NCBI GenBank assembly: GCA_029821875.1
Contig: JALGXW010000006.1
Span: 62,001 to 126,000 of the forward strand
Origin: Candidatus Hebobacterum abditum
GTDB lineage: Bacteria; Armatimonadota; Hebobacteria; Hebobacterales; Hebobacteraceae
Direction: 5' to 3'
Length of the DNA: 64,000 bases
Shown here: one piece after another, positions 45,564 to 64,000 of the stretch
Numbering within the stretch: the first letter of the stretch is position 1
Layout of the letters: each line of letters starts with the position of its first letter
Translations under genes and position numbers: made by a program
Notes under the pieces: model-generated
What the model was told of the DNA's origin: nothing
The model's input: only the letters and a program-made list of their open reading frames with translations
The model's database searches: none

Positions 45564-46328
45564 ATGAAGGGCGTAATCCTCGCGGGCGGCCTGGGAACAC
45601 GGCTCTTTCCGTTGACGAAAGCCACGAACAAGCACTTGCTCCCAGTGTACGACCAGTGCATGGTCCACTACCCGATCGGCAACATGCTGAGGGCCGGCAT
45701 CGACCACATTCTAGTGGTGACCGGCGGGCCCCATGCCGGGGACTTCATTCGCGTGCTGGGCACAGGCAAGGATCTGGGGATCAAGCACCTCGAGTATGGC
45801 TACCAGGAAGGTGAAGGGGGCATCGCCGATGCGCTGAGCATCGCGGAGGATTTCGCCGAAGGGGAGCCGGTACTCGTGATACTCGGGGACAACTTCACCG
45901 ACGCTGACCTGGGACAGGCAGCTCGATCCTTCACGGGGGGAGCCCATCTGTTCCTGAAGGAAGTGCCCGACCCGCGGGACTATGGGGTGGCAGTTTTCGA
46001 TGATGAGGATAGCTCGCGCATTGTCGCGATTGAGGAGAAGCCGGAGCAGCCGAAGAGCAGCTACGCCGTGACTGGCTTCTATATCTACGATCGGGGAGCA
46101 TTCGACTACGTGCGCGAGTCAGAGCCCTCGGCGCGGGGCGAGCTCGAGATCACGACAGTGAACAACTTCTATATCAGGGACGGGCTGATGACTTGGAGTG
46201 AGCTGGATGGGCTGTGGCTCGACTGCGGCACGTTTCACAGCCTCTTCACGGCCAGCCAGATCGTCGCCGAAGCACGTCAGAATGGTGAGAACCGATTCCC
46301 CCGCATCGCCTCAGAGAACAGTCCCTGA
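45564..46328 (+). CDS. rmlA: Sugar nucleotidyltransferase (glucose-1-phosphate thymidylyltransferase-like)
   Basis: A 254-residue enzyme of the RmlA family. It has GVILAGGLGTRLFPLTKATNKHLLPVYDQCMV, VILGDN and VTGFYIYD. It activates a sugar-1-phosphate to dTDP-sugar. The ATG has GAGAGGG upstream. Length is slightly short compared with enzymes that carry the regulatory C-terminus. It converges on rmlD. Other donors (UDP, GDP) are possible, but the rmlC/rmlD neighbours favour dTDP-rhamnose. Confidence 0.87.
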   Translation: MKGVILAGGLGTRLFPLTKATNKHLLPVYDQCMVHYPIGNMLRAGIDHILVVTGGPHAGDFIRVLGTGKDLGIKHLEYGYQEGEGGIADALSIAEDFAEGEPVLVILGDNFTDADLGQAARSFTGGAHLFLKEVPDPRDYGVAVFDDEDSSRIVAIEEKPEQPKSSYAVTGFYIYDRGAFDYVRESEPSARGELEITTVNNFYIRDGLMTWSELDGLWLDCGTFHSLFTASQIVAEARQNGENRFPRIASENSP

Positions 46329-46365: not shown

Positions 46366-47283
46366 TTACCTCGCCATCCAGCGACGGACGAACTCCTTGA
46401 CCCCCTCCTGCCAGCGCGGGAGTTTCGCTCCCAGGGTGCTCTCGAGCTTCTTCGTGGACAGCACGCTGTTTGCCGGCCGCGGAGCGGGGCGAGGGAAGTC
46501 AGCGGTGGTGACTGGCTCGATGTCCGGGACCATCCCGGCAGCTGAGATCACCTCGCAGGCGAACTCGTGCCAGCTGCACTGCCCGGACCCAACGGCGTGG
46601 TAGGTCCCCCGTATTCGTCGCTCCGCCGCTTCGACGAGGATGACCGCCAGGTGTGAGGTGTAGGTTGGAGAGCCGATCTGGTCCGAGACGACTCGCATAG
46701 GCCGGCCTGCTTGTTTCAGTTCGAGCATCGTGCGGGGAAAGCTCTTGCCGTGGATCCCGTACAGCCAGGCTGTTCGGATGATGCAGTGGCTTGGGCAGGC
46801 CCCCCGAACGGCTTCCTCGCCGGCAAGCTTGGACTTGCCGTACACTCCTAGTGGATTCGTCTGGTCCTCCTCGGCATACGGGCCGGCCTTCGTACCGTCG
46901 AACACGTAGTCCGTGCTGACGTGGACGAGGTCGCCGCCTGTTGAACGCACGGCCTCTGCCAGGTTCCGCGCGCCATCGCGGTTGACGCCAAATACGATCT
47001 CGGGCTCTAGCTCGGCCTGGTCCACCGCTGTGTGGGCGGCACAGTTAATGACAGCTTGCGGTTGGTGCTGCTCGACGAAGCGGCTGACAGCAGCCGGGTC
47101 GGCGAGGTCGAATTCCTCAATGTCGGCTGCGATGAAGGGTAGTCCTCGCCCAATCAGCACCTCGCAGAGATCGGTGCCGAGCATGCCGCGGGCCCCGGTG
47201 ACCAGGATTGGACTCGAGTAGCTCACCGGATTAATGGCCCCGAGCCTGCCTTCGCAAGAGAAGAGCGGCCCGCAGTACCTCAA
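46366..47283 (-). CDS. rmlD: dTDP-4-dehydrorhamnose reductase
   Basis: A 305-residue extended SDR. It has ILVTGARGMLGTDL at the N-terminus, AAHTAVDQAE, VSTDYVFDG and YGKSKLAGEEAV (catalytic Tyr and Lys). It performs the last step of dTDP-rhamnose synthesis. The longest frame starts with TTG 47283, which overlaps the rmlC stop by four bases and has GGGAG upstream. An in-frame GTG about 60 bases later is also possible and would begin nearer the Rossmann motif. It lies in an operon with rmlC. Confidence 0.88.
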   Translation of the reverse strand: MRYCGPLFSCEGRLGAINPVSYSSPILVTGARGMLGTDLCEVLIGRGLPFIAADIEEFDLADPAAVSRFVEQHQPQAVINCAAHTAVDQAELEPEIVFGVNRDGARNLAEAVRSTGGDLVHVSTDYVFDGTKAGPYAEEDQTNPLGVYGKSKLAGEEAVRGACPSHCIIRTAWLYGIHGKSFPRTMLELKQAGRPMRVVSDQIGSPTYTSHLAVILVEAAERRIRGTYHAVGSGQCSWHEFACEVISAAGMVPDIEPVTTADFPRPAPRPANSVLSTKKLESTLGAKLPRWQEGVKEFVRRWMAR

Positions 47284-48094: not shown

Positions 48095-51000
48095 CTACTC
48101 CATCAGCCCGAACGCCCGGGCGATGTAGACGGCCATCTGGTCGCGGGTGACGTACCCGGTGGGCCGGTAGTGGCCATCGGGGTAACCAGCGACGATCTCG
48201 TTCTCGAACAGATACTCGACGTGCATGAAGCACCAGTAGCTGGTCGGTACGTCCGGAAAAGCGGCGCCGTCCGGCGGCGTGTAGCCCGCGAGACCTTCAT
48301 CGCCGGTCGGGTCCACGAGGGCGCGTGCGACGAAGACGCTCATCTGGCCCCGGGTCACGTCCCGGTCGGGCTGGTAGCTGCCATCGCCGTATCCCTGGAC
48401 GATGGCATTCACCGCCGCGTACTCGATGTGCTTGTATGCCCAGTGATCAGCTGGGACGTCCGGGAAGGACGCCTCGAGCGGGCCACTGGGCACGCCACTG
48501 TTGCCGCCAGCGAGGCCGCGGGAGATGTACACGGCCATAGCTGCCCGGTCCACGCGGAGGTTCGGCCGGTAGAATCCATCCGGGAAGCCTGAGATGATTC
48601 CGGCCTCGACACAGGCCGCGATCGAGGTGAGGGCCCAGTGGTCGTCGCCGATGTCAAGGAAGGTGACTAGGTCGATGAACGTCGCCGTCACGCTTGTGTT
48701 GCCCCCGACCTCGACCCATACCGGGCTGGCAGAGCCCGAGACTGCGCCCGACCAACCCGAGAACTTCCATCCGTCCGCCGCCACGGCTCCGAGCTGCACC
48801 ACCGTGCCGTATACGTAGTCCTGGGACCAGGGCAAGGCAACGGGAGTGCCATTCACGAGCACCTGCCCCTCGCCTGTAGCCGTGATGCTGAGGGCGTAGG
48901 AGACCCAACCGAAGGACACAGTCACTGACTTGTCGCTGTCGACCACTATGGAAGTCGGGTTGTCGCTCCCCGACAGGTCTCCCGACCAGCCCATGAACTC
49001 TCGGTGGACATCCGGCACAGCCTCCAACGCCACCGTCTCGCCACACAGCACCGCTCCCGACCACGGAAGAGCCTGAGTGACGCCGTCCACAATCACTGAG
49101 CCGCCCTCGCCGTCAACGCTCAGGCTATACTCGATCTGCGAGAAGGTCGCCGTCACGTTCTTGTCCCCGTCGATGCTCAGCATGACAGGGCTGTCACTGC
49201 CTGACAGATCGCCTGTCCAGCCGTCGAACTGCCAGCAGGTGTTGGGTACAGCCTCGAGCGTGACGGTTGTGCCGCAGCCGAATGCACCGCTCCACGGCAG
49301 CGCATGCTCGACGCCGTCCACCATCACGGAGCCGCCCTGATCCCCTGACAAGCTGAGGCCATACTCCAGCAGGTCGAATGTGACCGTGATCGACTTATCG
49401 CTGTCGACGAGGATCGCCGCCGGACTGTCGCTCCCGGCCAGGTCACCCGACCAGGAATCGAACCGGTAGCAGGTGTCCGGCACTGCCTCGAGCGTTGCCG
49501 TGCTCCCGCAGTCCACGCTCCCAGACCAGGGCAGACTGTGGGCGACGCCATCAACGAGAATGGACCCCTCGCCCACTCCGCTAATGCTCAGCGTGTAGGT
49601 CACCTGGCCGAAGTTCGCCTGGACGGACTGATCACCGTCGACTGTCAATGCAACCGGACTGTCTCCTCCTGACAAGTCGCCAGACCAGTTCTCGAGCATC
49701 CAGCAGGTATCGGGGACCGCTTCAATGATCGCCGTGGCGCCGCACAGGTAGGTGTCCTGCCACGGAAGCGACTGCAGTAGCCCATCGACCCGTACTGCGC
49801 CGTCCCCGCTGCCAGTGATGCGGAGCGTGTGCTCGATCTGCGTGAACGTGGCCGTCACAGACTTGTTGCCATCCATGCTGAGCGACTTCGGAGCGGCGGC
49901 ACCGGAGAGATCCCCGGACCAGGAATCGAATTCCCAGCAAGGCTCAGGAGCCACGTCGAGCGTGACGCTCGTGCTACAGACGAAGTCTCCGCTCCACGGC
50001 AGGGACACCGGTGTACCATCGACCACGATCGACCCCTCACCGACACCACTCAGGCTAAGGGTGTACTCAATGGGAGCGAAGTTCGCCGTGATCGACACCG
50101 GACTGTCCATCGACACACTCGTGGGACTCGTCGAACCCGTGAGGTCGCCAGACCACGAGATGAACTCACTGCACCAGTCGGGCACAGCCTCGAGGACCAC
50201 GACCTGGCCGCAGTCGACATCGCCGGACCATGGAAGCGTCCGCGTTGTGCCATCGACGACGACGGAGCCGCTGCCCGTGCCGGCTAGGCTCAACGCGTAC
50301 TGTATCTTGGTGAAGTTGGCCGTCACGAGCTTCGGGGAGTCCATGGTGATGGTGGTCGGGCTGTCGCTGCCAGACAGGTCGTCCGCCCAACCGGCGAACT
50401 CGTAGCACGAAGCCGGCGCGGCCTCGAGCGCGACCAGGGAGCCGGCAGCGATCAGGGCAGACCAGGGGAGGGCCCGCTCCACGCCGTCGACGAACACGGT
50501 GCCGTTGCCGACGCCCTGGAGATCCAGCGTGTAGTAGATCTTGCTGAACTCCGCGGTGATAGACATGTCCGAGTCGAGCGTCACCGCAGTCGGGTTGTCG
50601 GAGCCCGCAAGATCGCCGGACCAGCTGGAGAATTCGTACGTGGCATCGGGGATGGCCTCGAGGCCGACCTCAGTCCCTTTGACAAAGACCTCTGCATAGG
50701 GCAGTGAGCGGCCTACGCCGTCCACAGCGATCTGGCCGTTGCCGCCGTTCAGGGTGAGAGTCCGGGTCGAGGCAAGATGAACAACCTGACCATTGCCTGA
50801 ATCGGCGACCCAGCAGGTATGGTCGTTCTGATTGACGGACACTGAACGCGGGATGCTGAATCCTCCGCCACGCCAGAGCTCGGTGCCGTCTGGCGCAAGG
50901 TGGACAACCTGGTTGTTGCCGAAGTCCGCGACCCAGCACGTGCGGTCAGATTCGTCAACGGCAACCCCGCGAGGGCCGCTGAAGCCACCGCCGCGCCAGA

Positions 51001-51820
51001 GCTCTGTGCCGTTCTCGGCGAGGTGGACAACTTGATTGTTGTCCCGATCTGCCACCCAGCAGGTCCCATTGCTCGAATTCACTGAGACAGACACGGGTCG
51101 GTTGAAGCCATCGCCCCTCCACAGCTCCGCGCCGGCCGCCGACAAGTGAACCACCTGGTTGTTCAGGTGGTCAGCGACCCAACAGGAGCCGTCGACCTGG
51201 TTGACGCTCACCGCGAGGGGTCGGGAGAACCCCGATCCCCGCCAGAGCTCGGACGAATCACTGGACAGATGGACCACCTGGTTGTTGCCATAGTCGGCTA
51301 CCCAGCAGGAACCGTCGACCGAGTTGGCCGAAACACCACGAGGTGAGCTGAAGCCCGCGGTACGGGACAGCTCGGTGCCGTCGGCCGCCAGGTGCACAAC
51401 CTGGTTGTTGAATCTGTCGCCTATCCAACAAGAACCATCGCTGGTGTTGACCGAAGTGCCCCAAGGGCCGTCAAAGGCCGCCCCTTGCCAGAGCTCGGTT
51501 CCATCTTCGGCGAAATGCACCACGACGTCGCCGCCGTGATCGGCCATCCAGCAGGAGCCGTCGGCAGAGCCAGCGGACACTGTGCGCGGCCCTGTGAATG
51601 TACCGCCTCGCCAGAGCTCGATCACATCTTCGGCGCCGCACGTGCTGGCAGCGAAACCGACTACCAGAAAGACGAACAGCATCGCCGTCAGACTGCCGGA
51701 CTTGACTCGGATCAGTCTCGGCCTGTTCGCCGAGGCCCGTGAGGCGATTGCTGAATGTGACCTAGTCAGCATAGGGGAACGATGAATCCCCCTATCTGCT
51801 TGGCACAGTGAGTTGGTCAT
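48095..51820 (-). CDS. Large surface protein: propeller-like repeats, nine bacterial repeats, three SLH domains
   Basis: A 1241-residue exported protein. A signal/TM region (LTAMLFVFLVVGFAAS, about residues 45-60) is followed by seven tandem repeats of about 41 residues (CWVADxGNNQVVHLxxDGTELWRG). These probably form an NHL-like beta-propeller. Nine repeats of about 78 residues follow (List-Bact type, LPWSG...GWSGDLSGSDSP...). Repeats 3 to 7 each carry two cysteines. Three SLH domains close the C-terminus (HWALTSI, HWAYKHI, YWCFMHV, each ending in RxxMAVYI-like). SLH domains bind pyruvylated or other secondary cell wall polymers. ATG 51820 has GGGGGAAG upstream. A TTG two codons earlier is open. 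Confidence 0.88.
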   Translation of the reverse strand: MTNSLCQADRGIHRSPMLTRSHSAIASRASANRPRLIRVKSGSLTAMLFVFLVVGFAASTCGAEDVIELWRGGTFTGPRTVSAGSADGSCWMADHGGDVVVHFAEDGTELWQGAAFDGPWGTSVNTSDGSCWIGDRFNNQVVHLAADGTELSRTAGFSSPRGVSANSVDGSCWVADYGNNQVVHLSSDSSELWRGSGFSRPLAVSVNQVDGSCWVADHLNNQVVHLSAAGAELWRGDGFNRPVSVSVNSSNGTCWVADRDNNQVVHLAENGTELWRGGGFSGPRGVAVDESDRTCWVADFGNNQVVHLAPDGTELWRGGGFSIPRSVSVNQNDHTCWVADSGNGQVVHLASTRTLTLNGGNGQIAVDGVGRSLPYAEVFVKGTEVGLEAIPDATYEFSSWSGDLAGSDNPTAVTLDSDMSITAEFSKIYYTLDLQGVGNGTVFVDGVERALPWSALIAAGSLVALEAAPASCYEFAGWADDLSGSDSPTTITMDSPKLVTANFTKIQYALSLAGTGSGSVVVDGTTRTLPWSGDVDCGQVVVLEAVPDWCSEFISWSGDLTGSTSPTSVSMDSPVSITANFAPIEYTLSLSGVGEGSIVVDGTPVSLPWSGDFVCSTSVTLDVAPEPCWEFDSWSGDLSGAAAPKSLSMDGNKSVTATFTQIEHTLRITGSGDGAVRVDGLLQSLPWQDTYLCGATAIIEAVPDTCWMLENWSGDLSGGDSPVALTVDGDQSVQANFGQVTYTLSISGVGEGSILVDGVAHSLPWSGSVDCGSTATLEAVPDTCYRFDSWSGDLAGSDSPAAILVDSDKSITVTFDLLEYGLSLSGDQGGSVMVDGVEHALPWSGAFGCGTTVTLEAVPNTCWQFDGWTGDLSGSDSPVMLSIDGDKNVTATFSQIEYSLSVDGEGGSVIVDGVTQALPWSGAVLCGETVALEAVPDVHREFMGWSGDLSGSDNPTSIVVDSDKSVTVSFGWVSYALSITATGEGQVLVNGTPVALPWSQDYVYGTVVQLGAVAADGWKFSGWSGAVSGSASPVWVEVGGNTSVTATFIDLVTFLDIGDDHWALTSIAACVEAGIISGFPDGFYRPNLRVDRAAMAVYISRGLAGGNSGVPSGPLEASFPDVPADHWAYKHIEYAAVNAIVQGYGDGSYQPDRDVTRGQMSVFVARALVDPTGDEGLAGYTPPDGAAFPDVPTSYWCFMHVEYLFENEIVAGYPDGHYRPTGYVTRDQMAVYIARAFGLME
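48646..50750 (-). repeat. Nine tandem about 234-base repeats (List-Bact type)
   Basis: These encode about 78-residue units with a VDG...LPWS...LEAVP...SWSGDLSGSDSP...DKSVTATF pattern in the middle of the SLH protein. They probably form a rigid beta stalk. Confidence 0.85.
50750..51604 (-). repeat. Seven tandem 123-base (41-codon) repeats
   Basis: These encode the propeller-like part of the SLH protein. Conserved positions in each unit are Gly-Phe, Pro, Ser-Val, Cys-Trp-Val-Ala-Asp, Asn-Gln-Val-Val-His-Leu and Glu-Leu-Trp-Arg-Gly. Divergence between units is moderate. Confidence 0.85.
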
Positions 51821-52511
51821 GGCCAACTTCCCCCATCACTGTCAGTGAGGATGGCAGTCCTGCGCCCCCAGGCCAGGGTCTCTGCTGCAGACCTACCTAC
51901 TCCGGCACAGGAGCAACAATGAGGCCAACCTGCAGCCGCCCAGCGGCGTGATCGCCCTCCCCTTCATGGACGTATTCCACAAGAGAGCGCCGATCTGAGA
52001 GCAGACCAGTCGTCGGGCGCCTTCGTCGGCGAGGCGGTCAGAGCGGAAAGCTCGACGCGCGCTCTGCTAAGAGGGAGCGCCGGAATACGGCTGCAGTGCC
52101 GCCACTCGCGCCCTACCCGAGGCGTGTGGTAGCATCCATCTGAGTACGCAATCACAGGCCGGATTCGATCTCCCAGACGTCTGGCCCAAACACCAGGCGG
52201 GCTTCCACCGTCCTCGCACCCTGCGCGAGCTCGTGGCCAAGCGAGCTCTGCATATGCTGAGGAGAGATGCCGGCGCGCAGCGACGCGACAGTGAGTTCTG
52301 GGCTCTTAGGGGCAAATGAGTCTCTGGACGGCGCGCCAGGGACACCGGCTGACTGGCCGCTGACGAAACAAAGCTGTCGCCCTCCCATGCGCCGACACCC
52401 ACGCGCGGCAGAGGCGGCCGAGAGAACTGTGTCCCTCGGCAGCCCTCCTGCCCGCTTACGTCTGTCGGCAAGGCTATCTGCGACAGCCTTGCGCTGTCCG
52501 ACCCCGCGCCC
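51821..52511. other. Intergenic region, 691 bases, no clear gene
   Basis: Between two surface-protein genes on the same strand. It contains the palindrome TCACTGTCAGTGA (51836-51848), just upstream of the SLH protein's ribosome-binding site. A stem GCAAGGCT/AGCCTTGC (52468-52492) lies just after the end of the upstream gene. Open frames such as the minus-strand one at 52067-52471 have no ribosome-binding site and no recognisable sequence, so I treat them as chance. Confidence 0.5.
52468..52492 (-). terminator. Stem-loop after the 511-residue surface protein gene
   Basis: GCAAGGCT (52468-52475) and AGCCTTGC (52485-52492) form a perfect 8-base stem with a 9-base loop, 20 bases after the stop codon of the gene at 52512-54047. 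There is no T-run, so its strength as a terminator is uncertain. Confidence 0.4.
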
Positions 52512-54958: not shown

Positions 54959-55753
54959 ATGCTTTCCTTCGTCCTCGATACCTGGCGGAGCCGGGGAGTA
55001 GTCGCGCACTTTGTCGGCGTTCAGTTGACGACCAGTTACCGCACCAAGTCGCTGGGCTTCCTATGGGCGCTACTGGATCCGCTACTGTTCATGTGCGTCT
55101 ACTACATCGTGTTTGGCCGCATCATAGCCATGCGTCCGCTCTCCTTCATGATCCACCTTTTCGTCGGCGTGATTGCCTTTCGTTTCCTCCAGGGCTCGGC
55201 CGCGCAGGCCGCTGGCGTGTTGCGCGCACACGGCGGGCTGATCAAGGAGATCCGTTTCCCGAAGGTCGCCTTACCGCTCTCCGTGATCATCGCGCGCCTC
55301 TTCGACTTCGGGGCTGGCTGGCTCATCGCCATCCCGCTCGGATTCGCGTTCGGCTACCCACCTACTCTGTACTGGCTTGCGATCCCGCTCTTCGTAGCGA
55401 TACAAATCCTGTTCGTTGCCGGCTTCTCACTTGTCACAGCCTACATCGGGCTGTTCTTCGCCGACGTCGAGAACATACTCGGTGTGCTGCTGCGACTGTG
55501 GTTCTACCTGTCGCCAGTGCTGTACGGGCTGGAGTTGGTGCGGCAAAGGACGGAGGGCTCGCCGCTTCTCTATCGGCTCTACCTTTTGAACCCAATGGTC
55601 AGCATCGTTGAGTGCTATCAGGCCTGCGTACAGCGGGCCCAATGGCCAGCCGTGCAGTTCGTCAGCTACGCACTCGTGTCGTCGATCGCCACGTTGCTGA
55701 TCGGCGTGCTCGTCTTTCGTAGGATGGAGGGTCAGATTGCGAAGTACGTATGA
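54959..55753 (+). CDS. wzm: Polysaccharide ABC exporter permease (Wzm/RfbA type)
   Basis: A 264-residue ABC-2 permease with six hydrophobic segments. The N-terminus RSRGVVAHFVGVQLTTSYRTKSLGFLWALLDPLLF is typical of teichoic-acid and O-antigen exporters (TagG/Wzm). It moves lipid-linked polysaccharide across the inner membrane. The ATPase is encoded 55 bases downstream and the glycosyltransferases after it. The ATG at 54959 has a weak ribosome-binding site. Confidence 0.92.
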   Translation: MLSFVLDTWRSRGVVAHFVGVQLTTSYRTKSLGFLWALLDPLLFMCVYYIVFGRIIAMRPLSFMIHLFVGVIAFRFLQGSAAQAAGVLRAHGGLIKEIRFPKVALPLSVIIARLFDFGAGWLIAIPLGFAFGYPPTLYWLAIPLFVAIQILFVAGFSLVTAYIGLFFADVENILGVLLRLWFYLSPVLYGLELVRQRTEGSPLLYRLYLLNPMVSIVECYQACVQRAQWPAVQFVSYALVSSIATLLIGVLVFRRMEGQIAKYV

Positions 55754-55808
55754 CAGGGCATCGAGTCTGTGCTCGTCGCTCCTGCCGACATCGCAGGAGG
55801 CGCCTGTT

Positions 55809-56561
55809 GTGGTAGACGACGTATGGCTCAAGTTCCAGCTGCAGTACTACCGGAAGCGTAATACGCTGCGGAGGACCGCGGTGACGCGGCTGTCCTCGCT
55901 TCTCCGGGGGCAGTGGGGCGAGAAGCGAAAGGACGAATTCTGGGCACTCCGAGGCGTGACCCTCAGCGTCCCGCAAGGCGAGGTGTTGGGACTCGTGGGT
56001 CCCAATGGGGCTGGCAAGAGCACGCTTCTTCGCGTCATCGCGGGGATCTACGCGCCGGACCACGGCCGAGTGACAGTGTGCGGGACAGTGGCTACGCTGC
56101 TGTCATTCGGCGCTGGCTTTGACCTTCGGCGTCCCGGCAGAGAGAACATCTACAAGAACGCCACACTGCTTGGACTCACCAGAGAGTGCATTGATGATCG
56201 GGCGGATGCCATCGTGGCGATGAGCGGACTTGGTAAGTTCATCGATGCGCCTGTCATGACGTACTCCGCGGGGATGCGGGCGAGACTCGGTTTCTCCATT
56301 GCCGTAAACGTGGATCCCGATGTGCTGCTCATTGATGAGGTGGTCGGAGTGGGGGATGAGAGGTTCCGCGCCCGGGTGGGGAACATCTTCGATCGGCTCG
56401 CCAGCAGTGGTCGGACGATCGTATTCGCCACGCACTCGCTGGCACTGCTTGAGCAGTACTGCACTCAAGCCGTATGGATAGAGGAGGGCCAGGTGCGTCT
56501 GCAGGGCGCGCCGTCCGAGGTGGCGAAGGAGTATCTGTCTGCCGCGAAGACGGAAGAATGA
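55809..56561 (+). CDS. wzt: Polysaccharide ABC exporter ATPase (Wzt/TagH type), no C-terminal domain
   Basis: A 250-residue ATPase. Walker A GPNGAGKST (residues 64-72), signature YSAGM (151-155) and Walker B LLIDEVVGVGD (172-182) are present. The long N-terminal extension before the first strand is typical of Wzt/TagH. The frame opens at 55737, inside the permease gene, but AGGAGG (55795-55800) followed by GTG 55809 marks the start. It lacks the C-terminal carbohydrate-binding domain of longer Wzt proteins, so it probably exports without reading the glycan end. It overlaps the next gene by 4 bases (ATGA). Confidence 0.93.
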   Translation: MVDDVWLKFQLQYYRKRNTLRRTAVTRLSSLLRGQWGEKRKDEFWALRGVTLSVPQGEVLGLVGPNGAGKSTLLRVIAGIYAPDHGRVTVCGTVATLLSFGAGFDLRRPGRENIYKNATLLGLTRECIDDRADAIVAMSGLGKFIDAPVMTYSAGMRARLGFSIAVNVDPDVLLIDEVVGVGDERFRARVGNIFDRLASSGRTIVFATHSLALLEQYCTQAVWIEEGQVRLQGAPSEVAKEYLSAAKTEE

Positions 56562-59209
56562 GCGACAGAGGTAGTTCCGACAAGGGGCCGGACGGGGTGT
56601 CGGGGGCCCCGTCTGACCGAGACAGCGCTCCGAGCGTTCGTCACCGGTCATCACCGGTGTCAGGTCCCGCTGAGGATGCTGGCGCGACCGATCTGCTGCG
56701 CCGCGCTGACCCGTGTGAGTTCGATCTCAGCTTCGACATCTTCCAGCGGTATGCAGCTGTTGCGCACCTCATCCAAGCATCGGCCGGCAACATGGCCGAG
56801 CGTCGGCTGCGAGTCCTGGACGTGGGCTCAGGCAGCGACGACTTCCTGCGGCGGTTCCTGCCTGAGGCCCGGTTCGAGGTCTACTTCCTTGACAAGGGGA
56901 TGTCCCCCGAGAGAGCCAGAGAGCTCCACTTCGTCCGAGGCGACGCTGTGTGTCTTCCCTTCACGGCTGGGTTCTTTGACATGACGTGCTCTATCGACCT
57001 TCTCGAACACCTGTTGCCGGCAGATCGCTGCCGAGCGATCGACGAGATGGTTCGGGTCACAAGGGGAGCAGTTGTCATCGCTGCGCCATGTGCAGAGGAC
57101 GGGGTGGCTTTCTACGAGCAACTCGCGAACTCCGTGTACAAGGCGTACTTCGGCGAAGACAACAAGTGGCTTGCAGAACACCGCGACCTCAACCTGCCGC
57201 GTGAAGGTGACATTCTGGAGTATATGCGGCGCAGGCATGGTTGCCGGGGGCGGGTCTTTCCCAATGGCCATCTTCCTCGCTGGAGCCAGATGATCGCCTT
57301 CAACCTGATACTGCGTCGCACGCAGAGCTTGGCCGATTACGCCGCGCTTGTGAGTCGCTTCTACAACCAGCACCTTTATGACTACGACAACAGGGGGCCG
57401 TGCTACCGCCGCGTCTTCCTGCTCGGCGGGCCCGACCACGTGACTCTTCCGTGCCGGGAGGAGGACGCAGACTACCAAGAGCACTACGCGCAGCTAAGGC
57501 AGTTCGTCCAGCTGGGATATGAGATGCTCGGCATCCTGCCCTCCATACGGGCAGCGGGTGGCGTCCGCGAAGTCAAGGAGGCTCTGGAGGACGATCTGTC
57601 TCGGACTCGGGCCGAAGCGTCAGAACTGCGGACCGAGCTGTCGCGGGTTCGGGCCGAGGGGCAGCAGGCGGAGCGCAGAGCATCAGAGCTGCGGGCGGAG
57701 CTGTCGCGGGTCCGGGCCGAAGGGCAGCAGGCAGAGCGCAGAGCGTCAGAACTGCGGACCGAGCTGTCGCGGGTTCGGGCCGAAGGGCAGCAGGCAGAGC
57801 GCCGAGCAGCGGACCTGCTGCGCGATCTGGCGGCCAGCCGGAACGAGAGCGAAGCTGCTCTGAGGGAAGCCGGTGCACGGCTGAGCGAATCCGAGGCGGA
57901 GCTGTCGTCGTTGAGAGGGGAGGCTGGACGTCTGCAGAGCGAACTGGAGGAACAGAATCGGCAGACCGCGAAGGCGCGGGCCGTTGCGCAGCGGCAAGAG
58001 GCGCGCGTGAGAAGGGTCCTCGCCTCCCGGACGTACCGCGCCGGCCAAGTTGTCCTGTTCCCATTCACGTTGGCCCGCGCTGCGCTCCGCGCCGGCGCCA
58101 GAACGAGCCTTCGACCGGGCCTGGGCAAGGATGCGGCACGCGTAGTGCAGTACACGCCGACGGACCCGCAGAATCCCTACTACACGGTCACACTGCGGGC
58201 CCTCGAACGTCTGGGCTGGTCAGTTGCGTGTCAGGACGACACCGAAGCCATTCTCAGACGAATTCGACGCGAGGCCGACGCGCGGTTTCTCGTGCTCTTC
58301 CATCAGTTTGACCCATACATTCATCCCGCGAGGGGACGCTCCGGGCGCGAACGTGCGGACGCGCTCATGAGGGATATGCGGCAGATCAAGCGGGCGGGGG
58401 GCGCTCTTGTCTGGACGCTTCATAACTACCTTCCGCACGATGCAACTTCCGAGGAAGTGGAGCAGGAGTTGCGGCTGCGCAGGTTTGTGAGGACGCACTT
58501 CGACGCAGTTATCGTGCTCAACGAGGCGGGCCGAGCTGAAGCTCGGCGGTTCTTCCCAGACGACATGATAGCGCTCGTGCCTCATGTGAGCTTCAAGGAC
58601 GTCCACGGCCCGAGGGTGTCTCGCGAGGAGGCGCGGAGCAGGTTCGGGTATCCGAAGGACGCATTCTTCTTCGGGAGTTTCGGGGCAATCCGACCCTATA
58701 AAGGTCTGGAGCTGGTCATCGACGCGTTCCGAGACATTGGGCAGGACGAGGCGCGACTTCTCATCGTTGGCGGCGCGAAGGATCAGGACTATGTCCATTC
58801 CCTGCGTCGCCGCGCGGGTGAGGATTGTCGAGTCATCATCCGTGCCGGCCCTGCGGTACCCAGCGCGGACATACCGATCTGGCTTGGTGCCATGGATGTG
58901 GCTGTGTTCGGCTTCACCTCGATCCTCACCTCCGGGTCGGTCATCCTGGCTCTGTCCTACGGGCTGCCGGTCATCGCGCCCAACGTCGGCGGTATCTCTG
59001 AAGTGGTCATCCACGAGGAGAATGGCCTACTGTACGAGGACAACAGCGCCGACTCGCTTCGGCAGGCGATGCAGTCAACGGTTGGCCACCCACTGCTACC
59101 TCACATGCAGTACATGGCAAGGCCATCTCTGGACGAGGTATCCGCGGACAACGTGGCGCGCCAGATGCAGGAGGTGTTCGCCCGAGTTCTGGACGTCTCG
59201 CGAAGCTGA
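56558..59209 (+). CDS. Methyltransferase - coiled-coil - glycosyltransferase fusion protein
   Basis: An 883-residue protein. Residues about 60-200 form a class I SAM methyltransferase (VLDVGSGSDDF, motif I at 87-94; DMTCSIDLLEHL). Residues about 345-490 form a long coiled coil containing three 21-residue units. Residues about 520-883 form a GT4-like glycosyltransferase (FGAIRPYKGLELVIDAF; LALSYGLPVIAPNVGGISEVV). ATG 56558 overlaps the Wzt stop. The longer frame from 56474 is inside wzt. It probably acts on the exported glycan. By analogy with WbdD-type rulers, it might limit chain length, but that is inference. Confidence 0.88.
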   Translation: MSDRGSSDKGPDGVSGAPSDRDSAPSVRHRSSPVSGPAEDAGATDLLRRADPCEFDLSFDIFQRYAAVAHLIQASAGNMAERRLRVLDVGSGSDDFLRRFLPEARFEVYFLDKGMSPERARELHFVRGDAVCLPFTAGFFDMTCSIDLLEHLLPADRCRAIDEMVRVTRGAVVIAAPCAEDGVAFYEQLANSVYKAYFGEDNKWLAEHRDLNLPREGDILEYMRRRHGCRGRVFPNGHLPRWSQMIAFNLILRRTQSLADYAALVSRFYNQHLYDYDNRGPCYRRVFLLGGPDHVTLPCREEDADYQEHYAQLRQFVQLGYEMLGILPSIRAAGGVREVKEALEDDLSRTRAEASELRTELSRVRAEGQQAERRASELRAELSRVRAEGQQAERRASELRTELSRVRAEGQQAERRAADLLRDLAASRNESEAALREAGARLSESEAELSSLRGEAGRLQSELEEQNRQTAKARAVAQRQEARVRRVLASRTYRAGQVVLFPFTLARAALRAGARTSLRPGLGKDAARVVQYTPTDPQNPYYTVTLRALERLGWSVACQDDTEAILRRIRREADARFLVLFHQFDPYIHPARGRSGRERADALMRDMRQIKRAGGALVWTLHNYLPHDATSEEVEQELRLRRFVRTHFDAVIVLNEAGRAEARRFFPDDMIALVPHVSFKDVHGPRVSREEARSRFGYPKDAFFFGSFGAIRPYKGLELVIDAFRDIGQDEARLLIVGGAKDQDYVHSLRRRAGEDCRVIIRAGPAVPSADIPIWLGAMDVAVFGFTSILTSGSVILALSYGLPVIAPNVGGISEVVIHEENGLLYEDNSADSLRQAMQSTVGHPLLPHMQYMARPSLDEVSADNVARQMQEVFARVLDVSRS
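57617..57805 (+). repeat. Three tandem 63-base repeats encoding three heptads each
   Basis: The copies are 57617-57679, 57680-57742 and 57743-57805. Copies 1 and 3 differ at three bases and copies 1 and 2 at seven. Each encodes a 21-residue unit of the pattern xSELRxELSRVRAEGQQAERR. Twenty-one residues are exactly three heptads, so copy-number change would keep the coiled-coil register. Confidence 0.9.
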
Positions 59210-59211
59210 AG

Positions 59212-61377
59212 ATGCCGCCTCGGAGCGGAAGATCGGAAGATGAGGATCAGAGAGTGCCGGCAACGGACATAGTCGTGCCTGTGCACAACTCGCTCTATCA
59301 CGCCCGGCCTTGCGTTGAGAGCGTTCTGCACAACACCAAGCAGCCCTTTCATCTCTACGTCGTGGACGACGGGTCGGACGCGCATGTGCATGCCGAGATG
59401 GCGAGTATACTGGCGCCGCACGGCGACAGGGCCAGTCTCTGCCGCAATCCGACTGCGATCGGCTACTTGAGCAGCGTGAACCTCGGTATCCGGGCCGGCC
59501 AGAACCCGACCGTCGTGTTGCTGAACTCGGATGTGGTTGTGAGCCCCGGCTGGCTGAGTCATCTGCTCTTCCCGTTTGACGACGACCCCGCTGTCGGCAT
59601 CATCAACCCGGTATCGAACTGGGCCAACTGGACGCGCATTCCCTTCGCGCCGGGCTTTACGATTCATGATTACGCAGAGTTCGTAGCAGAGATCGGAGAC
59701 AACGCCTACGCCGACATCTACAACGCCTCCGGCTTCTGCTTTGCGGCAAGACGTACTCTTCTCGAGGAGCTGGGCTTGTTCGACGAGGCCTATGCCCCCG
59801 GATACTGGGAAGAGACCGACCTCTGTCTAAAGGCTCTTGAGCACGGCCATCGGGTCGTGGTCAATCTTGGGAGTTTCGTGTACCACTTCGGCTGGGGCTC
59901 GTTCCGCCCGACGGGACGGAACGAATGGCTGGAGCGCAACCGCGAGATCTTCACCGCGCGGTGGGGGAAGCAGTTCGAGGAGCTCAAGCGCCGATGGCAG
60001 CAGGAGAGGGTGTTGGCGGAACTCGAAGAGGCAGTCCACGCGCGCCAGAGAGAGGTGGAACAGGCCGACACCAGATGGCAGGGCTGGCTCAAGCAGGCGC
60101 GCCGCTTCGGCCTCAGGCACACGGCAAGCGCGATGGCGGCCACTCTGTCGAACGCTCTGCTGCGGTCAGACCGCGATGAAGATGTCGGTGAGCGCTTCGC
60201 GAAGGCGGTCGAGAAGACCATGAGCATGACGGAGAGCGATCGCCCGGCTGAGAACCATAGGCGACTGCAGAAGATTCGAAGGCGTTTCGCAGGACGGGTC
60301 CGCCAGACGAGCCGTCCCGCGACCGCACCATCGGGGCCAGGTCGGCTGCGCGTGGTCTACCTACTTCCCGCGCTCAAGCTGTACGGAGGCATCCTCTCTG
60401 TTCTGCAGATCGTCAATCACCTGGCCCTGGCGGGAGAGCAAGCGAACGTAGCCACCTATGGCGAATGCGACCCGGACCTCCTGCGTGGCCTGCCGCTGTA
60501 CGCGAGTCCGTACTGCTTCCCAAGCCGTAGTGTGATGCTGGAGAACTTCCCCGAATGCGATGTCGTGGTTGCGACCCGATGGGATACGGCGTACGACGCC
60601 ATCATGTTGCAGGAGGCGTATCCGCGAGTGCGGCTCGCATACTTCGTGCAGGACTACGAGCCTGACTTCTACCCGATCGGGAGCCAGCTGTCTCATCGGG
60701 CAGAACTCACGTACCATCTGATCGGCAAGCAGATCGTGAAAACCCAGTGGCTTGCGCGCAAGTTGCGGCGGTTCGACAGCGACGTCGTGCAGATTCCGCT
60801 GGGCCTCAACTTGGACATCTACTACGATTCGGGGAACCCCGCGCGCCAGGAGTGTACGCGGGTGCTAGCCATGGCGAGGCCGACGTCGAAGTACCGCAAC
60901 TACGAGGGTCTGCTGCGGATCTTCACGACTCTTCACGAGGAGAGACCTGATATCGAGCTCTGCCTCTACGGCACAGATCTCGACCCTGAATCACTGCCCT
61001 TTCCCTGCGACTCGCAGGGCCGGCTGTACAGGATGGCGGACGTCGCTGCGCTGCTCAACCGATGCACGATTCTGCTCGACTGCTCCACTTTCCAGGGCTT
61101 CGGTCGTCCCGGCCTGGAGGCCATGGCGACCCGCACGGCCGCTGTTCTCACGCGGAACGGAGGAATCACGGAGTACGCGAAGCACCTTCACAACTGCCTG
61201 CTCGCCGACCCGCTGGATGTCGATGAGAACGTTGCCAAGATCATCCAGCTTGCCGATGAGGTAGATCTGCGGCGTCGCCTGATCGACCGCGGGGTCGAGA
61301 CCGCAAGGCAGTACGACGCCCGACTGGAAGGAGCGCGGACCCGGAGCTTCCTTCGATCCCTGGTGGGACTAGAGTGA
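59212..61377 (+). CDS. Double glycosyltransferase (GT2 N-terminal, GT4 C-terminal)
   Basis: A 721-residue fusion. The N-terminal about 270 residues are a GT2 (TDIVVPVHNSLYHARPCVESVL, VVDDGSDA, VLLNSDVVVSPGWL, ADIYNASGFCFAARR). A charged linker (about 270-365) follows. The C-terminal about 350 residues are a GT4 (RVVYLLPALKLYGGILSVLQIV, VLAMARPTSKYRNYEGLL, STFQGFGRPGLEAMATRTAAV). It begins 3 bases after the previous stop, so it is co-translated. It probably adds two successive sugars to the repeat unit. Confidence 0.9.
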   Translation: MPPRSGRSEDEDQRVPATDIVVPVHNSLYHARPCVESVLHNTKQPFHLYVVDDGSDAHVHAEMASILAPHGDRASLCRNPTAIGYLSSVNLGIRAGQNPTVVLLNSDVVVSPGWLSHLLFPFDDDPAVGIINPVSNWANWTRIPFAPGFTIHDYAEFVAEIGDNAYADIYNASGFCFAARRTLLEELGLFDEAYAPGYWEETDLCLKALEHGHRVVVNLGSFVYHFGWGSFRPTGRNEWLERNREIFTARWGKQFEELKRRWQQERVLAELEEAVHARQREVEQADTRWQGWLKQARRFGLRHTASAMAATLSNALLRSDRDEDVGERFAKAVEKTMSMTESDRPAENHRRLQKIRRRFAGRVRQTSRPATAPSGPGRLRVVYLLPALKLYGGILSVLQIVNHLALAGEQANVATYGECDPDLLRGLPLYASPYCFPSRSVMLENFPECDVVVATRWDTAYDAIMLQEAYPRVRLAYFVQDYEPDFYPIGSQLSHRAELTYHLIGKQIVKTQWLARKLRRFDSDVVQIPLGLNLDIYYDSGNPARQECTRVLAMARPTSKYRNYEGLLRIFTTLHEERPDIELCLYGTDLDPESLPFPCDSQGRLYRMADVAALLNRCTILLDCSTFQGFGRPGLEAMATRTAAVLTRNGGITEYAKHLHNCLLADPLDVDENVAKIIQLADEVDLRRRLIDRGVETARQYDARLEGARTRSFLRSLVGLE

Positions 61378-61490: not shown

Positions 61491-62705
61491 ATGAGGCGAG
61501 AGGCATACGAACTACTCGTTGAGGGTGAGACGCTCTTCTTCCGGCGAGAAGGCTCCGGATCGCTCATCGAGGCGGCCGAAACCTGGAACCAGCTCTACCA
61601 CGCGGTTGGATATGAATGGGCGTGCGCCGTCATCGGGGGGATGGGCAGGGATTCCCTTTCCGTGGTAGATGCCGCCTGCGGGTCCGGCTACGGAAGCGCT
61701 CGCATGGCGGAGCTGTCGTGTGTGAGGTCGGTTCTTGGAGTTGACATCAACCCTGTGCAGCTTGCGTACGCGCGGGAGTGGCACTCCGTTCCGAAGGTGG
61801 AGTTCGTCCGGGGCGATGTCCTACACCTGGACAAGCTGGTGCCGGGACCGGGAGCCGATGTGATAGTGTCGTTCCAGACGATGGAGCATCTCTTCGATCC
61901 TGTGGGGTTCGTCGCAGCCATGCACCGAGGCCTCAGGAAGGACGGGATCGTGCTTCTGGGGACCCCGAGCCACGACGAGCCGGTCTTTCTTAGTCCAGAG
62001 AACCCCTACCATCTCCTCGAATCCAGCCAGGACCTCCTTCACTCCCTGCTCTCCTTCTTCTTCTCGGACATTCGCTTCTTCGACGAGTTGCCTCAGCAGG
62101 AGGTGTTCGAACACCTTACCCTCCGCGCGCCGGATGGGCCGCCACTCCCAAACGCGAACTACGCGATGGCGGCGAGACCCAGGCGTTTCCTCTCGCAGCG
62201 ACGGGTGGAGCGCTTCCGCAACGAGTTTCTGCTGCGCCTCTGGCGCGCCGGCATCGGCGCTCTTCAACGCCGGGCGATAGAGGAACGCAGGGCCGAGCAT
62301 TTCCTGACCGACTGCTACGAGTTCCTCGACCTCGACGATGGCTTCTATCAGCCGGAGTTGAAGTTCGTGTGGACCAAGGAGAAGGCCACACTCACCTTTC
62401 ACTCGGAATCGGAGTCTGCCCGGTGCGGCTTCACCGTCGTGCCCGCGCCTCCCGACGTCTCTGAGGCGAATGCCGTCACCGTCCGGCTGACCGATCCGAA
62501 AGGACGCACGACCGAGTACCATCTGACGAAGCGCCAGGGGTTCGCCATAGAGTTGGAGTGCGAGCAGGGGGCCAATCGTTTTCAACTGGAGGTCGATCGC
62601 ACCTGGACTCCCGCGGAAGACGCGGAGTCCGCTGATATCCGACGCCTCGGCCTCAGGCTGTCGGACTTCTGGCTCGGACAAGGCAGCGGCCCGGGGCAGC
62701 CCTGA
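61491..62705 (+). CDS. SAM-dependent methyltransferase with C-terminal extension
   Basis: A 404-residue protein with a class I methyltransferase core (about residues 45-220: VVDAACGSGYGSARMAEL, DVLHLDKL, VSFQTMEHLFDPVGFVAAM). The C-terminal about 110 residues (LKFVWTKEKATLTF, AVTVRLTDPKGRTTEY) look like a beta domain. It lies 113 bases after the double glycosyltransferase and probably methylates the glycan or its lipid carrier. No membrane segment. Confidence 0.85.
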   Translation: MRREAYELLVEGETLFFRREGSGSLIEAAETWNQLYHAVGYEWACAVIGGMGRDSLSVVDAACGSGYGSARMAELSCVRSVLGVDINPVQLAYAREWHSVPKVEFVRGDVLHLDKLVPGPGADVIVSFQTMEHLFDPVGFVAAMHRGLRKDGIVLLGTPSHDEPVFLSPENPYHLLESSQDLLHSLLSFFFSDIRFFDELPQQEVFEHLTLRAPDGPPLPNANYAMAARPRRFLSQRRVERFRNEFLLRLWRAGIGALQRRAIEERRAEHFLTDCYEFLDLDDGFYQPELKFVWTKEKATLTFHSESESARCGFTVVPAPPDVSEANAVTVRLTDPKGRTTEYHLTKRQGFAIELECEQGANRFQLEVDRTWTPAEDAESADIRRLGLRLSDFWLGQGSGPGQP

Positions 62706-62808: not shown

Positions 62809-64000
62809 CTAACTGCCTAGTCCCCAGTTGCCTGCCACGGGCCGGAGATCGGCCCCCGAGACCGGGAGGCTGAACTGCGCCTCGGCCTCCCCATCGGCGA
62901 GCCGATTCGTGATGTAGAACCGAGCGTGGTGTGGATCGTATAACCCGATGCCGTCTCTTCCGTCGCCGTCCCAATCACCAGCGAGTGGGATGAAGTGCTT
63001 GCCCTGGCTGCCGAGCCGCACGACCAGTGCACCGTCTTCACCACTCAGCTCAGTCCTTAGGTGAAACGCGCTGGTGTCGGGGCAGTAAAGGCCCACGGAA
63101 TCTGCGCCGGCTGCGTTCCAGTCACCCGCCAAAGGGATCCACCCACAGTGGCTTGAGCCGTACCGTACCACGATCTCAGCGTTGCCGGCTTCGAGCGTGT
63201 TGGTGAGGTAGAACTTGCTCGTCTCCGGCGCATAGAGCCCAACTGTGTCCTTGCCGTCCCCGTTCCAGTCGCCAGCGATTGGCTGCCATCCCGTGTCGCG
63301 GGGGCCGAAGCCAAAGATGATCTCCGCCGTGGGTACCTGCGGCCGGTTGGCAAGGTGAAACTGCCCTGACTCTTGATCATAGACTCCCACCGTATCAGTG
63401 CCGTCCCCGTCCCAGTCGCCAGCGACGGGAATGACCCGACGGCTGCCCGGCCCGAAGGGAAACACAGTGGCGATCCTCCCTGGGGCCCCTGACGCCGCGA
63501 GAAAGTACGTGTGCTCTTCGCAATCAAAGAGTGCGACCTGTTCCCCGCCCATGGAAGCGATGGGCGGAGCAGTCTGGAGTGCTTCTATGCGACTCATGTC
63601 ATAGGGCTTGATCAGGTCAGCCCACTCTTCGTCCGTGAACTCTCTCAACGCACCAAAGATCTCGACGTGCTGGTAGATTGGCCGCGGGAATCGAATCGCG
63701 GGTTTCGGCCCGTGGCGACTCTGGTCGTACTGATGTGAGTCCTGGGGGGCACCACTCGGCAAGATGCTGGGGTGAGAGGAATGATGCACCGGCTCTAGGC
63801 CCCGGAAGTAGTACCGCTGGAGGCTAAATCGCTCGAACATGTCCACAAACTGGCACCTCCGCACATGACACTGGTGGGCCGGCCAGTCGTGGTAGTAGAG
63901 CTTCAGCCCCAGCGACTCAAGGTAGTCCTCGTCTTCGAAGCTCGGGTGATGAATGTAGATGAAATCGGTGGCAAGCTCCGCGGCCCGCCCTATCACCCGT
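62809..64000 (-). CDS. Protein with FG-GAP/VCBS-like repeats, 5' end beyond the window
   Basis: At least 395 residues. The frame has no stop up to the window edge. The first codon I can see near the edge is GTG 63996, but it has no ribosome-binding site before it. The N-terminal visible about 140 residues (DFIYIHHPSFEDEDYLE, YHDWPAHQCHVRRC) resemble the second half of a methyltransferase-like domain. The C-terminal part has four to five repeats of about 52 residues with DWDGDGTDTVGVY, DWNGDGKDTVGLY and DWDGDGRDGIGLY, likely calcium-binding loops of a propeller-like fold. It converges on the methyltransferase gene with a 103-base gap. Confidence 0.7.
   Translation of the reverse strand, partial: RVIGRAAELATDFIYIHHPSFEDEDYLESLGLKLYYHDWPAHQCHVRRCQFVDMFERFSLQRYYFRGLEPVHHSSHPSILPSGAPQDSHQYDQSRHGPKPAIRFPRPIYQHVEIFGALREFTDEEWADLIKPYDMSRIEALQTAPPIASMGGEQVALFDCEEHTYFLAASGAPGRIATVFPFGPGSRRVIPVAGDWDGDGTDTVGVYDQESGQFHLANRPQVPTAEIIFGFGPRDTGWQPIAGDWNGDGKDTVGLYAPETSKFYLTNTLEAGNAEIVVRYGSSHCGWIPLAGDWNAAGADSVGLYCPDTSAFHLRTELSGEDGALVVRLGSQGKHFIPLAGDWDGDGRDGIGLYDPHHARFYITNRLADGEAEAQFSLPVSGADLRPVAGNWGLGS

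What the first reader, a model, noticed from the sequence alone, without database searches (positions are those of the whole stretch)
56558..59209. Possible chain-length ruler: methyltransferase, exact three-heptad tandem repeats and glycosyltransferase, coupled to Wzm/Wzt
The gene overlaps wzt by 4 bases. Its coiled coil contains three near-identical 63-base repeats, each exactly three heptads. In E. coli O9a, WbdD joins a methyltransferase and a kinase to a coiled coil whose length sets O-antigen chain length. Here the kinase is replaced by a GT4 domain. Recent repeat copying (copies differ at three to seven of 63 bases) would let the coil length vary without breaking register, so glycan length could be tuned by copy number.
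Basis: partly seen in the sequence, partly recalled or inferred. Interest (0 to 1): 0.7.

Follow-up and report, generated by a model that had tools for sequence, protein, structure and literature searches.

The report
Probable sugar-chain length ruler protein
An uncultured bacterium (phylum Armatimonadota) encodes one large enzyme that probably extends a surface sugar chain at one end and caps it at the other, with a rod between them that has been lengthened by copying a 21-amino-acid segment three times; the design is known from other bacteria, but whether the copy number sets sugar length is untested.

Summary
ORF 56558-59209 (883 aa) overlaps wzt by 4 bases. It holds a class I methyltransferase (MT), one long helix/coiled coil (about residues 337-488) with three 63-base tandem copies (3, 6 and 7 differences of 63), and a C-terminal GT4-type glycosyltransferase. 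Best reading: a terminator-coil-polymerase fusion of an ABC-transporter (Wzm/Wzt) glycan pathway, the kind known from Klebsiella O7 ORF6, O12 WbbB, E. coli O8 WbdD and Geobacillus WsaE. The strongest support is an Actinomycetota locus where the same MT subfamily, fused to a coil, directly follows wzm-wzt and precedes a GT2/GT4 gene. The GT4 does not replace the WbdD kinase: it sits beyond the coil, where O7 and O12 carry polymerase modules, and there is no kinase. The MT is not detectably a WbdD homologue. This Wzt lacks the carbohydrate-binding domain that couples capping to export in O8/O9a. Copy-number tuning is untested: no orthologue was found in the genus or family, and the related system's WbdD-O8 kept one length in 39 of 40 E. 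coli records listed. A mildly new variant of a known kind.

The parts
54959..55753 (+). wzm: ABC-2 type polysaccharide exporter permease, 264 aa
   Evidence: PF01061 5.5e-8; NCBIfam galactan export Wzm/RfbD 2.4e-12, below that model's cut-off
55737..56561 (+). wzt: ABC exporter ATPase, 274 aa, without the C-terminal carbohydrate-binding domain (Wzt_C)
   Evidence: ABC_tran only; teichoic acid/galactan exporter models best; no PF14524 in the genome assembly
56558..59209 (+). MT - coil - GT4 fusion, 883 aa, overlapping wzt by 4 bases
56726..57427 (+). class I SAM-dependent methyltransferase domain (residues about 57-290); nearest solved folds include the sugar O-methyltransferases RebM/AtmM
   Evidence: PF08241 6.3e-7; AlphaFold of residues 1-530; Foldseek 3bus 2.4e-10; profile hit 6uv6 2.4e-7
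57566..58021 (+). single long helix / coiled coil, residues about 337-488
   Evidence: AlphaFold H337-488; heptad score
57616..57678 (+). 63-base tandem copy 1
57679..57741 (+). 63-base tandem copy 2
57742..57804 (+). 63-base tandem copy 3
58022..58117 (+). coil-end segment ASRTYRAGQVVLFPF.. (resembles NSRSWRITQPLR behind the WbdD-O8 coil); possible membrane or partner docking region
   Evidence: sequence comparison by eye only
58130..59206 (+). GT-B glycosyltransferase domain of GT4 type; group with a conserved SG(S) motif and without the canonical E-x7-E
   Evidence: PF13692 4.4e-19, PF00534 2.8e-18; alignment with relatives
59212..61377 (+). GT2 + short coil + GT4 glycosyltransferase, 721 aa, with a WsaF_N match; probable polymerase or adaptor partner
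   Evidence: PF00535, PF00534, PF21374 3.2e-7; heptad score
61491..62705 (+). second, stand-alone class I methyltransferase, 404 aa
   Evidence: PF13847 1.3e-14
45564..46328 (+). RmlA-like nucleotidyltransferase (rhamnose precursor), nearby
   Evidence: TIGR01207 2e-66, below cut-off
46366..47283 (-). RmlD dTDP-4-dehydrorhamnose reductase, nearby
   Evidence: TIGR01214 330.6 bits, cut-off 224

Best explanation
The gene encodes a terminator-ruler-polymerase protein of a Wzm/Wzt-exported surface glycan, probably a rhamnose-containing O-polysaccharide. The C-terminal GT4 domain, with the GT2/GT4 protein of the next gene, extends a lipid-linked chain near the membrane. The N-terminal methyltransferase, held about 22 nm away at the far end of a coiled coil, O-methylates the chain end once the chain is long enough to reach it, and so stops growth. 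The finished chain is exported by Wzm/Wzt. The three 63-base copies lengthened the rod in register, about 3 nm per copy. Shown: the domains, their order, a single long predicted helix, the operon, the absence of a kinase and of a Wzt carbohydrate-binding domain. Inferred: capping, polymerisation, the ruler action and the sugar. That copy number is actively used to tune length is not part of this explanation.
For: Domain order MT-coil-GT with MT at the distal end, as stated for the known terminators (PMC11231755). The MT subfamily recurs with a coil directly behind wzm-wzt and before a GT2/GT4 gene in an Actinomycetota MAG (L049), with a coil in a Sumerlaeota MAG and upstream of a GT2-like domain in a Gemmataceae MAG. 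E. coli O8 has the order wzm-wzt-WbdD followed by a large glycosyltransferase. In Geobacillus, wzm, wzt and wsaE (MT + two GTs) overlap and wsaF is its polymerase partner (PMC2943079); here the next gene has a WsaF_N match. Nearest solved relatives of the MT include sugar O-methyltransferases. RmlA-like, RmlB, RmlD and an O-antigen-ligase-like gene lie on the same contig and lpxC in the genome.
Against: Wzt lacks the carbohydrate-binding domain that reads the cap in O8/O9a, and none was found elsewhere in the genome; the Actinomycetota relative has it. The MT is not detectably homologous to WbdD-O8 (BLASTP E 1.1, hhalign probability 13%). [quoted passage not shown] Short coils also occur at the ends of ordinary glycosyltransferases of this genome's other Wzm/Wzt locus, so a coil is not by itself a ruler. 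No activity or glycan is known for this organism.
Confidence: 0.58

Rival explanations
1. The coil is only a scaffold or oligomerisation rod that holds a methyltransferase and a glycosyltransferase together. The MT decorates internal or side-branch sugars, and chain length is set by the balance of polymerisation and export, as in exporters whose Wzt has no carbohydrate-binding domain.
For: Wzt without carbohydrate-binding domain; coils at the ends of ordinary GTs in the second Wzm/Wzt locus; a further MT in the same operon (61491-62705); chain-length-independent methylation by WsaE.
Against: The MT-coil module recurs directly behind wzm-wzt in another phylum; characterised MT-coil proteins of Wzm/Wzt clusters are terminators (PMC11231755); the 152-residue helix is longer than a linker needs to be.
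Confidence: 0.3
2. About the repeat alone: the 63-base array is neutral or nearly neutral in-frame duplication in a coil. Selection only removed duplications that broke the heptad register; copy number carries no regulatory meaning. This is compatible with the best explanation, so its confidence is scored on its own scale.
For: Copies have diverged by 5-11%, mostly synonymously; several other in-frame tandem arrays exist in this genome; WbdD-O8, a methyl-only WbdD with a coil, has the same 1278-base length in 39 of 40 records listed at even steps from 303.
Against: Two extra copies lengthen the rod by about 6 nm, which would matter if it is a ruler.
Confidence: 0.75

Closest known systems
Klebsiella pneumoniae O7 ORF6 (PMC11231755)
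   Same: Single protein in an ABC-exporter pathway: N-terminal MT, central coiled coil, C-terminal GT modules; rhamnose-containing glycan; orthologues in other taxa with or without the GTs
   Different: O7 has a kinase and an Ig-like domain between MT and coil and two GT2 modules; here there is no kinase and one GT4-type module, with heptad-step tandem repeats
K. pneumoniae O12 WbbB (PMC11231755)
   Same: Terminator, coiled-coil ruler and polymerase in one polypeptide
   Different: The O12 terminator is a Kdo transferase, not an MT
E. coli O8 WbdD
   Same: Methyltransferase without kinase, with a coil, encoded directly behind wzm-wzt
   Different: MT not detectably homologous; polymerase is a separate protein; shorter coil by the same crude score (77 against 157 residues); O8 Wzt is 404 aa, this one 274 aa
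Geobacillus stearothermophilus WsaE (with WsaF)
   Same: N-terminal O-methyltransferase fused to GT domains, gene overlapping wzm-wzt, with WsaF as partner; methyl cap on a rhamnan (PMC2943079)
   Different: Two GT domains; a coil is not mentioned in the source read; methylation not length-dependent in vitro; S-layer glycan of a Gram-positive bacterium
Actinomycetota MAG JASEEZ010000011.1 (L049) MT-coil pair
   Same: Same MT subfamily (32% identity), coil, directly behind wzm-wzt and before a GT2/GT4 gene
   Different: No fused GT, two MT-coil genes in tandem, Wzt with Wzt_C domain, no DNA repeat in the coils

Membership tests
WbdD (E. coli O8/O9a terminators) | N-terminal MT homologous to the WbdD MT | tested here: not met
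   BLASTP E 1.1 against WbdD-O8; profile comparison probability 13%; no WbdD structure among the profile hits
WbdD (E. coli O8/O9a terminators) | Kinase domain between MT and coil (O9a type only) | tested here: not met
   No kinase Pfam hit; model goes from MT to coil with only about 45 poorly predicted residues between
WbdD (E. coli O8/O9a terminators) | Extended coiled coil C-terminal to the catalytic domain | tested here: met
   Helix 337-488, heptad score
WbdD (E. coli O8/O9a terminators) | Gene directly behind wzm-wzt | tested here: met
   4-base overlap with wzt; same order in E. coli O8
WbdD (E. coli O8/O9a terminators) | Partner Wzt with carbohydrate-binding C-terminal domain | tested here: not met
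   Wzt 274 aa; no PF14524 in the genome assembly
Terminator-coil-polymerase fusions (Kp O7 ORF6, O12 WbbB) | Candidate terminator enzyme N-terminal, coil in the middle, GT module C-terminal in one chain | tested here: met
Terminator-coil-polymerase fusions (Kp O7 ORF6, O12 WbbB) | N-terminal domain caps the chain end | not testable with these tools
   No biochemistry; inferred from sugar-MT fold and context
WsaE-type methyl-glycosyltransferases | N-terminal MT fused to GT, overlapping wzm-wzt, with a WsaF-type GT gene beside it | tested here: met
   Order and overlap, WsaF_N match in the next gene, WsaE arrangement from PMC2943079
WsaE-type methyl-glycosyltransferases | Sequence homology to WsaE | not tested
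   The WsaE sequence was not fetched
Coiled-coil molecular ruler | Product length follows coil length | not testable with these tools
   Needs glycan analysis
Copy-number-variable (contingency-like) repeat locus | Copy number differs between strains or within a population | tested here: inconclusive
   No orthologue in genus, family or phylum samples; no reads or other strains available

The most novel reading that the evidence does not exclude
The coil is a ruler whose length is set by the copy number of a 63-base, three-heptad tandem repeat, so that unequal recombination gives cells in a population different modal glycan lengths without breaking coil register: a genetic dial for surface-sugar length.
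Probability: 0.08. Interest if true: 0.75.

Novelty: new variant of a known kind. Interest (0 to 1): 0.4.

Why it matters
If right, it extends coiled-coil control of glycan length to the phylum Armatimonadota, shows a methyl-terminator/coil/GT fusion working with a Wzt that lacks the usual cap-reading domain, and offers a natural coil built from interchangeable 21-residue modules, convenient for testing whether glycan length follows rod length step by step.

Tried and rejected
Orthologue searches with the whole protein: genus 2 genomes, family 8, genome contigs and viral contigs: none. The MT domain in 291 phylum genomes gives only stand-alone MTs; the GT domain gives mostly stand-alone GTs of about 340-480 aa. 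Plasmid hits share only the GT domain; the Methylosinus protein is a GT4 behind an unrelated N-terminus without an MT hit. The second Wzm/Wzt locus of this genome is conserved in the family but shows no MT-coil gene in the stretches read. WbdD as homologue: rejected. A recombination mosaic in copy 3 (copy 1-like at the 5' end, copy 2-like at the 3' end) was considered; a star tree explains the eight variable sites about as well. PHROGs added only weak GT-region matches. The two original ruler papers (PMC4650267, PMC5321029) are not held.

Full report
Observation. The ORF at 56558-59209 is open, 883 residues long, and begins on the ATGA that ends wzt, a 4-base overlap. Tandem Repeats Finder reports 57616-57808, period 63, 3.1 copies, 89% matches, no indels. 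The copies differ at 7, 3 and 6 of 63 bases; two to five codon differences per pair are synonymous and one or two are not. Codon shuffles of the coil never scored above 71 against 323 observed. The unit reads (E/R)ASELR(T/A)ELSRVRAEGQQAER: 21 residues, three heptads, one register through residues about 336-425, then a phase shift. The array occurs once in the genome assembly.

How unusual. In 922,595 bases sampled from this genome assembly about ten other tandem arrays score above 130, some stronger than this one, most in coding frames (PKD-like, beta-propeller-like, Ala/Glu-rich, Gly/Arg/Met-rich proteins). An in-frame tandem array is therefore ordinary here. The heptad multiple is what selection for coil register would leave (inference).

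Anatomy. Pfam finds a methyltransferase near residues 86-170 and a GT4-type glycosyltransferase at 689-840. AlphaFold on residues 1-530, with eight MT relatives in the alignment, gives a class I MT fold at about 57-290, a poorly predicted stretch to 336, and one helix from 337 to 488 with good confidence over the repeats. Mean pLDDT is only 66.8 and the oligomeric state is unknown. No kinase-sized domain separates MT and coil; the part of the MT beyond the Pfam match also exists in stand-alone relatives. Nearest solved relatives include the sugar O-methyltransferases RebM and AtmM. At 0.15 nm per residue (textbook) the helix is about 22-23 nm and each copy about 3 nm. The GT domain belongs to a group that keeps an SG(S) motif and lacks the canonical GT4 E-x7-E.

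Surroundings. Upstream are wzm (54959-55753) and wzt (55737-56561). Downstream come a GT2-coil-GT4 protein with a WsaF_N match (59212-61377) and another MT (61491-62705). RmlD above its cut-off and an RmlA-like gene lie at 45-47 kb, RmlB and an O-antigen-ligase-like TPR protein further along the contig, and LpxC in the genome. Lipid A and dTDP-rhamnose are thus plausible, and an O-polysaccharide is the likeliest product. An SLH-domain protein at 48095-51826 leaves an S-layer glycan possible. The Wzt has no C-terminal carbohydrate-binding domain, and PF14524 is not found in the 95%-complete genome.

Relatives. One phylum member (G275) is recognisable as a public Armatimonadetes MAG by its contig length, and a family member (G003) is probably the Armatimonadota chromosome CP070816.1, of nearly the same length. 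This places the genome in Armatimonadota. No orthologue of the fusion was found in one other genus member, six further family members or 291 phylum genomes, so the operon looks accessory. A second Wzm/Wzt locus is conserved in the family and shows no MT-coil gene. A scan with the MT alignment gave the most telling relative: in an Actinomycetota MAG (L049) wzm, wzt with a Wzt_C domain, two MT-coil genes of the same subfamily (32% identity) and a GT2/GT4 gene follow each other on one strand. A Sumerlaeota protein has MT, a further region and a coil-like end; a Gemmataceae protein has MT and a GT2-like domain downstream. The MT-coil module is therefore found with a Wzm/Wzt exporter beyond this genome, and a GT is fused to this MT in some lineages. 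The L049 coils are shorter (about 90 and 72 residues against 157 by the same crude score) and have no DNA repeats.

Known systems. [quoted passage not shown] PMC3482155 describes WbdD-O9a as MT-kinase-coil and notes a methyltransferase-only homologue in O8. PMC2943079 describes WsaE as MT plus two GTs, its gene overlapping wzm-wzt, with WsaF as partner and a methyl cap, but with methylation independent of length in vitro. PMC13168486 proposes the same ruler role for an MT-coil protein of E. coli O101.

Is coil length tuned? It cannot be tested in this organism. As a control, WbdD-O8 was taken from E. coli IAI1 and searched in 5,426 E. coli genomes: 303 have it, 302 with at least 80% of the query, and 39 of the 40 rows listed at even steps span exactly 1278 bases in one piece (the other is a fragment). 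A methyl-only WbdD with a coil thus does not visibly vary in length within that species. The copies here have also diverged by 5-11%, so the array is not freshly slipping. The tuning idea stays possible but unsupported.

Verdict. A terminator-coil-polymerase fusion of a Wzm/Wzt glycan pathway, most likely a ruler by analogy; a new variant of a known kind because it combines a methyl-only candidate terminator, a GT4-type module, a Wzt without cap-reading domain and heptad-step repeats.

Noticed in passing
L049:3830-5911: The dTDP-glucose 4,6-dehydratase (RmlB) gene of the Actinomycetota MAG seems to contain an in-frame intein-like insertion with homing-endonuclease-like sequence (reading frame 693 aa).
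   Followed up: no
L049:9971-12087: Two adjacent MT-coil genes are nearly identical over about the first 80-90 residues and then diverge strongly, as after a recent partial duplication or gene conversion.
   Followed up: no
window 58130-59206: The GT4-type domain and its relatives in Armatimonadota and haloarchaea lack the canonical E-x7-E motif but keep an SG(S) motif, suggesting a separate GT group.
   Followed up: partly
L043:9014-18982 (G000 contig C52): A second Wzm/Wzt locus, conserved in the family, with GTs that end in a short coil followed by TSRR(L)(H/Y)RW; WbdD-O8 has NSRSWRIT and the window protein ASRTYRAG at the same place, a possible common coil-end docking motif.
   Followed up: partly
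L010:10810-12303 (reaches window 62809-64000): A methyltransferase-like N-terminus fused to FG-GAP-type repeats, an odd pairing of what looks cytoplasmic and what is usually exported.
   Followed up: no
L155:19641-19902: A 36-base tandem array, 7.3 copies, coding for Ala/Glu-rich (EAVASEAEQ..) repeats in another gene of this genome.
   Followed up: no
window 48095-51826: Large protein on the minus strand with NHL repeats, seven InlB B-type repeats and three SLH domains, next to the glycan operon; a possible S-layer or surface protein.
   Followed up: partly
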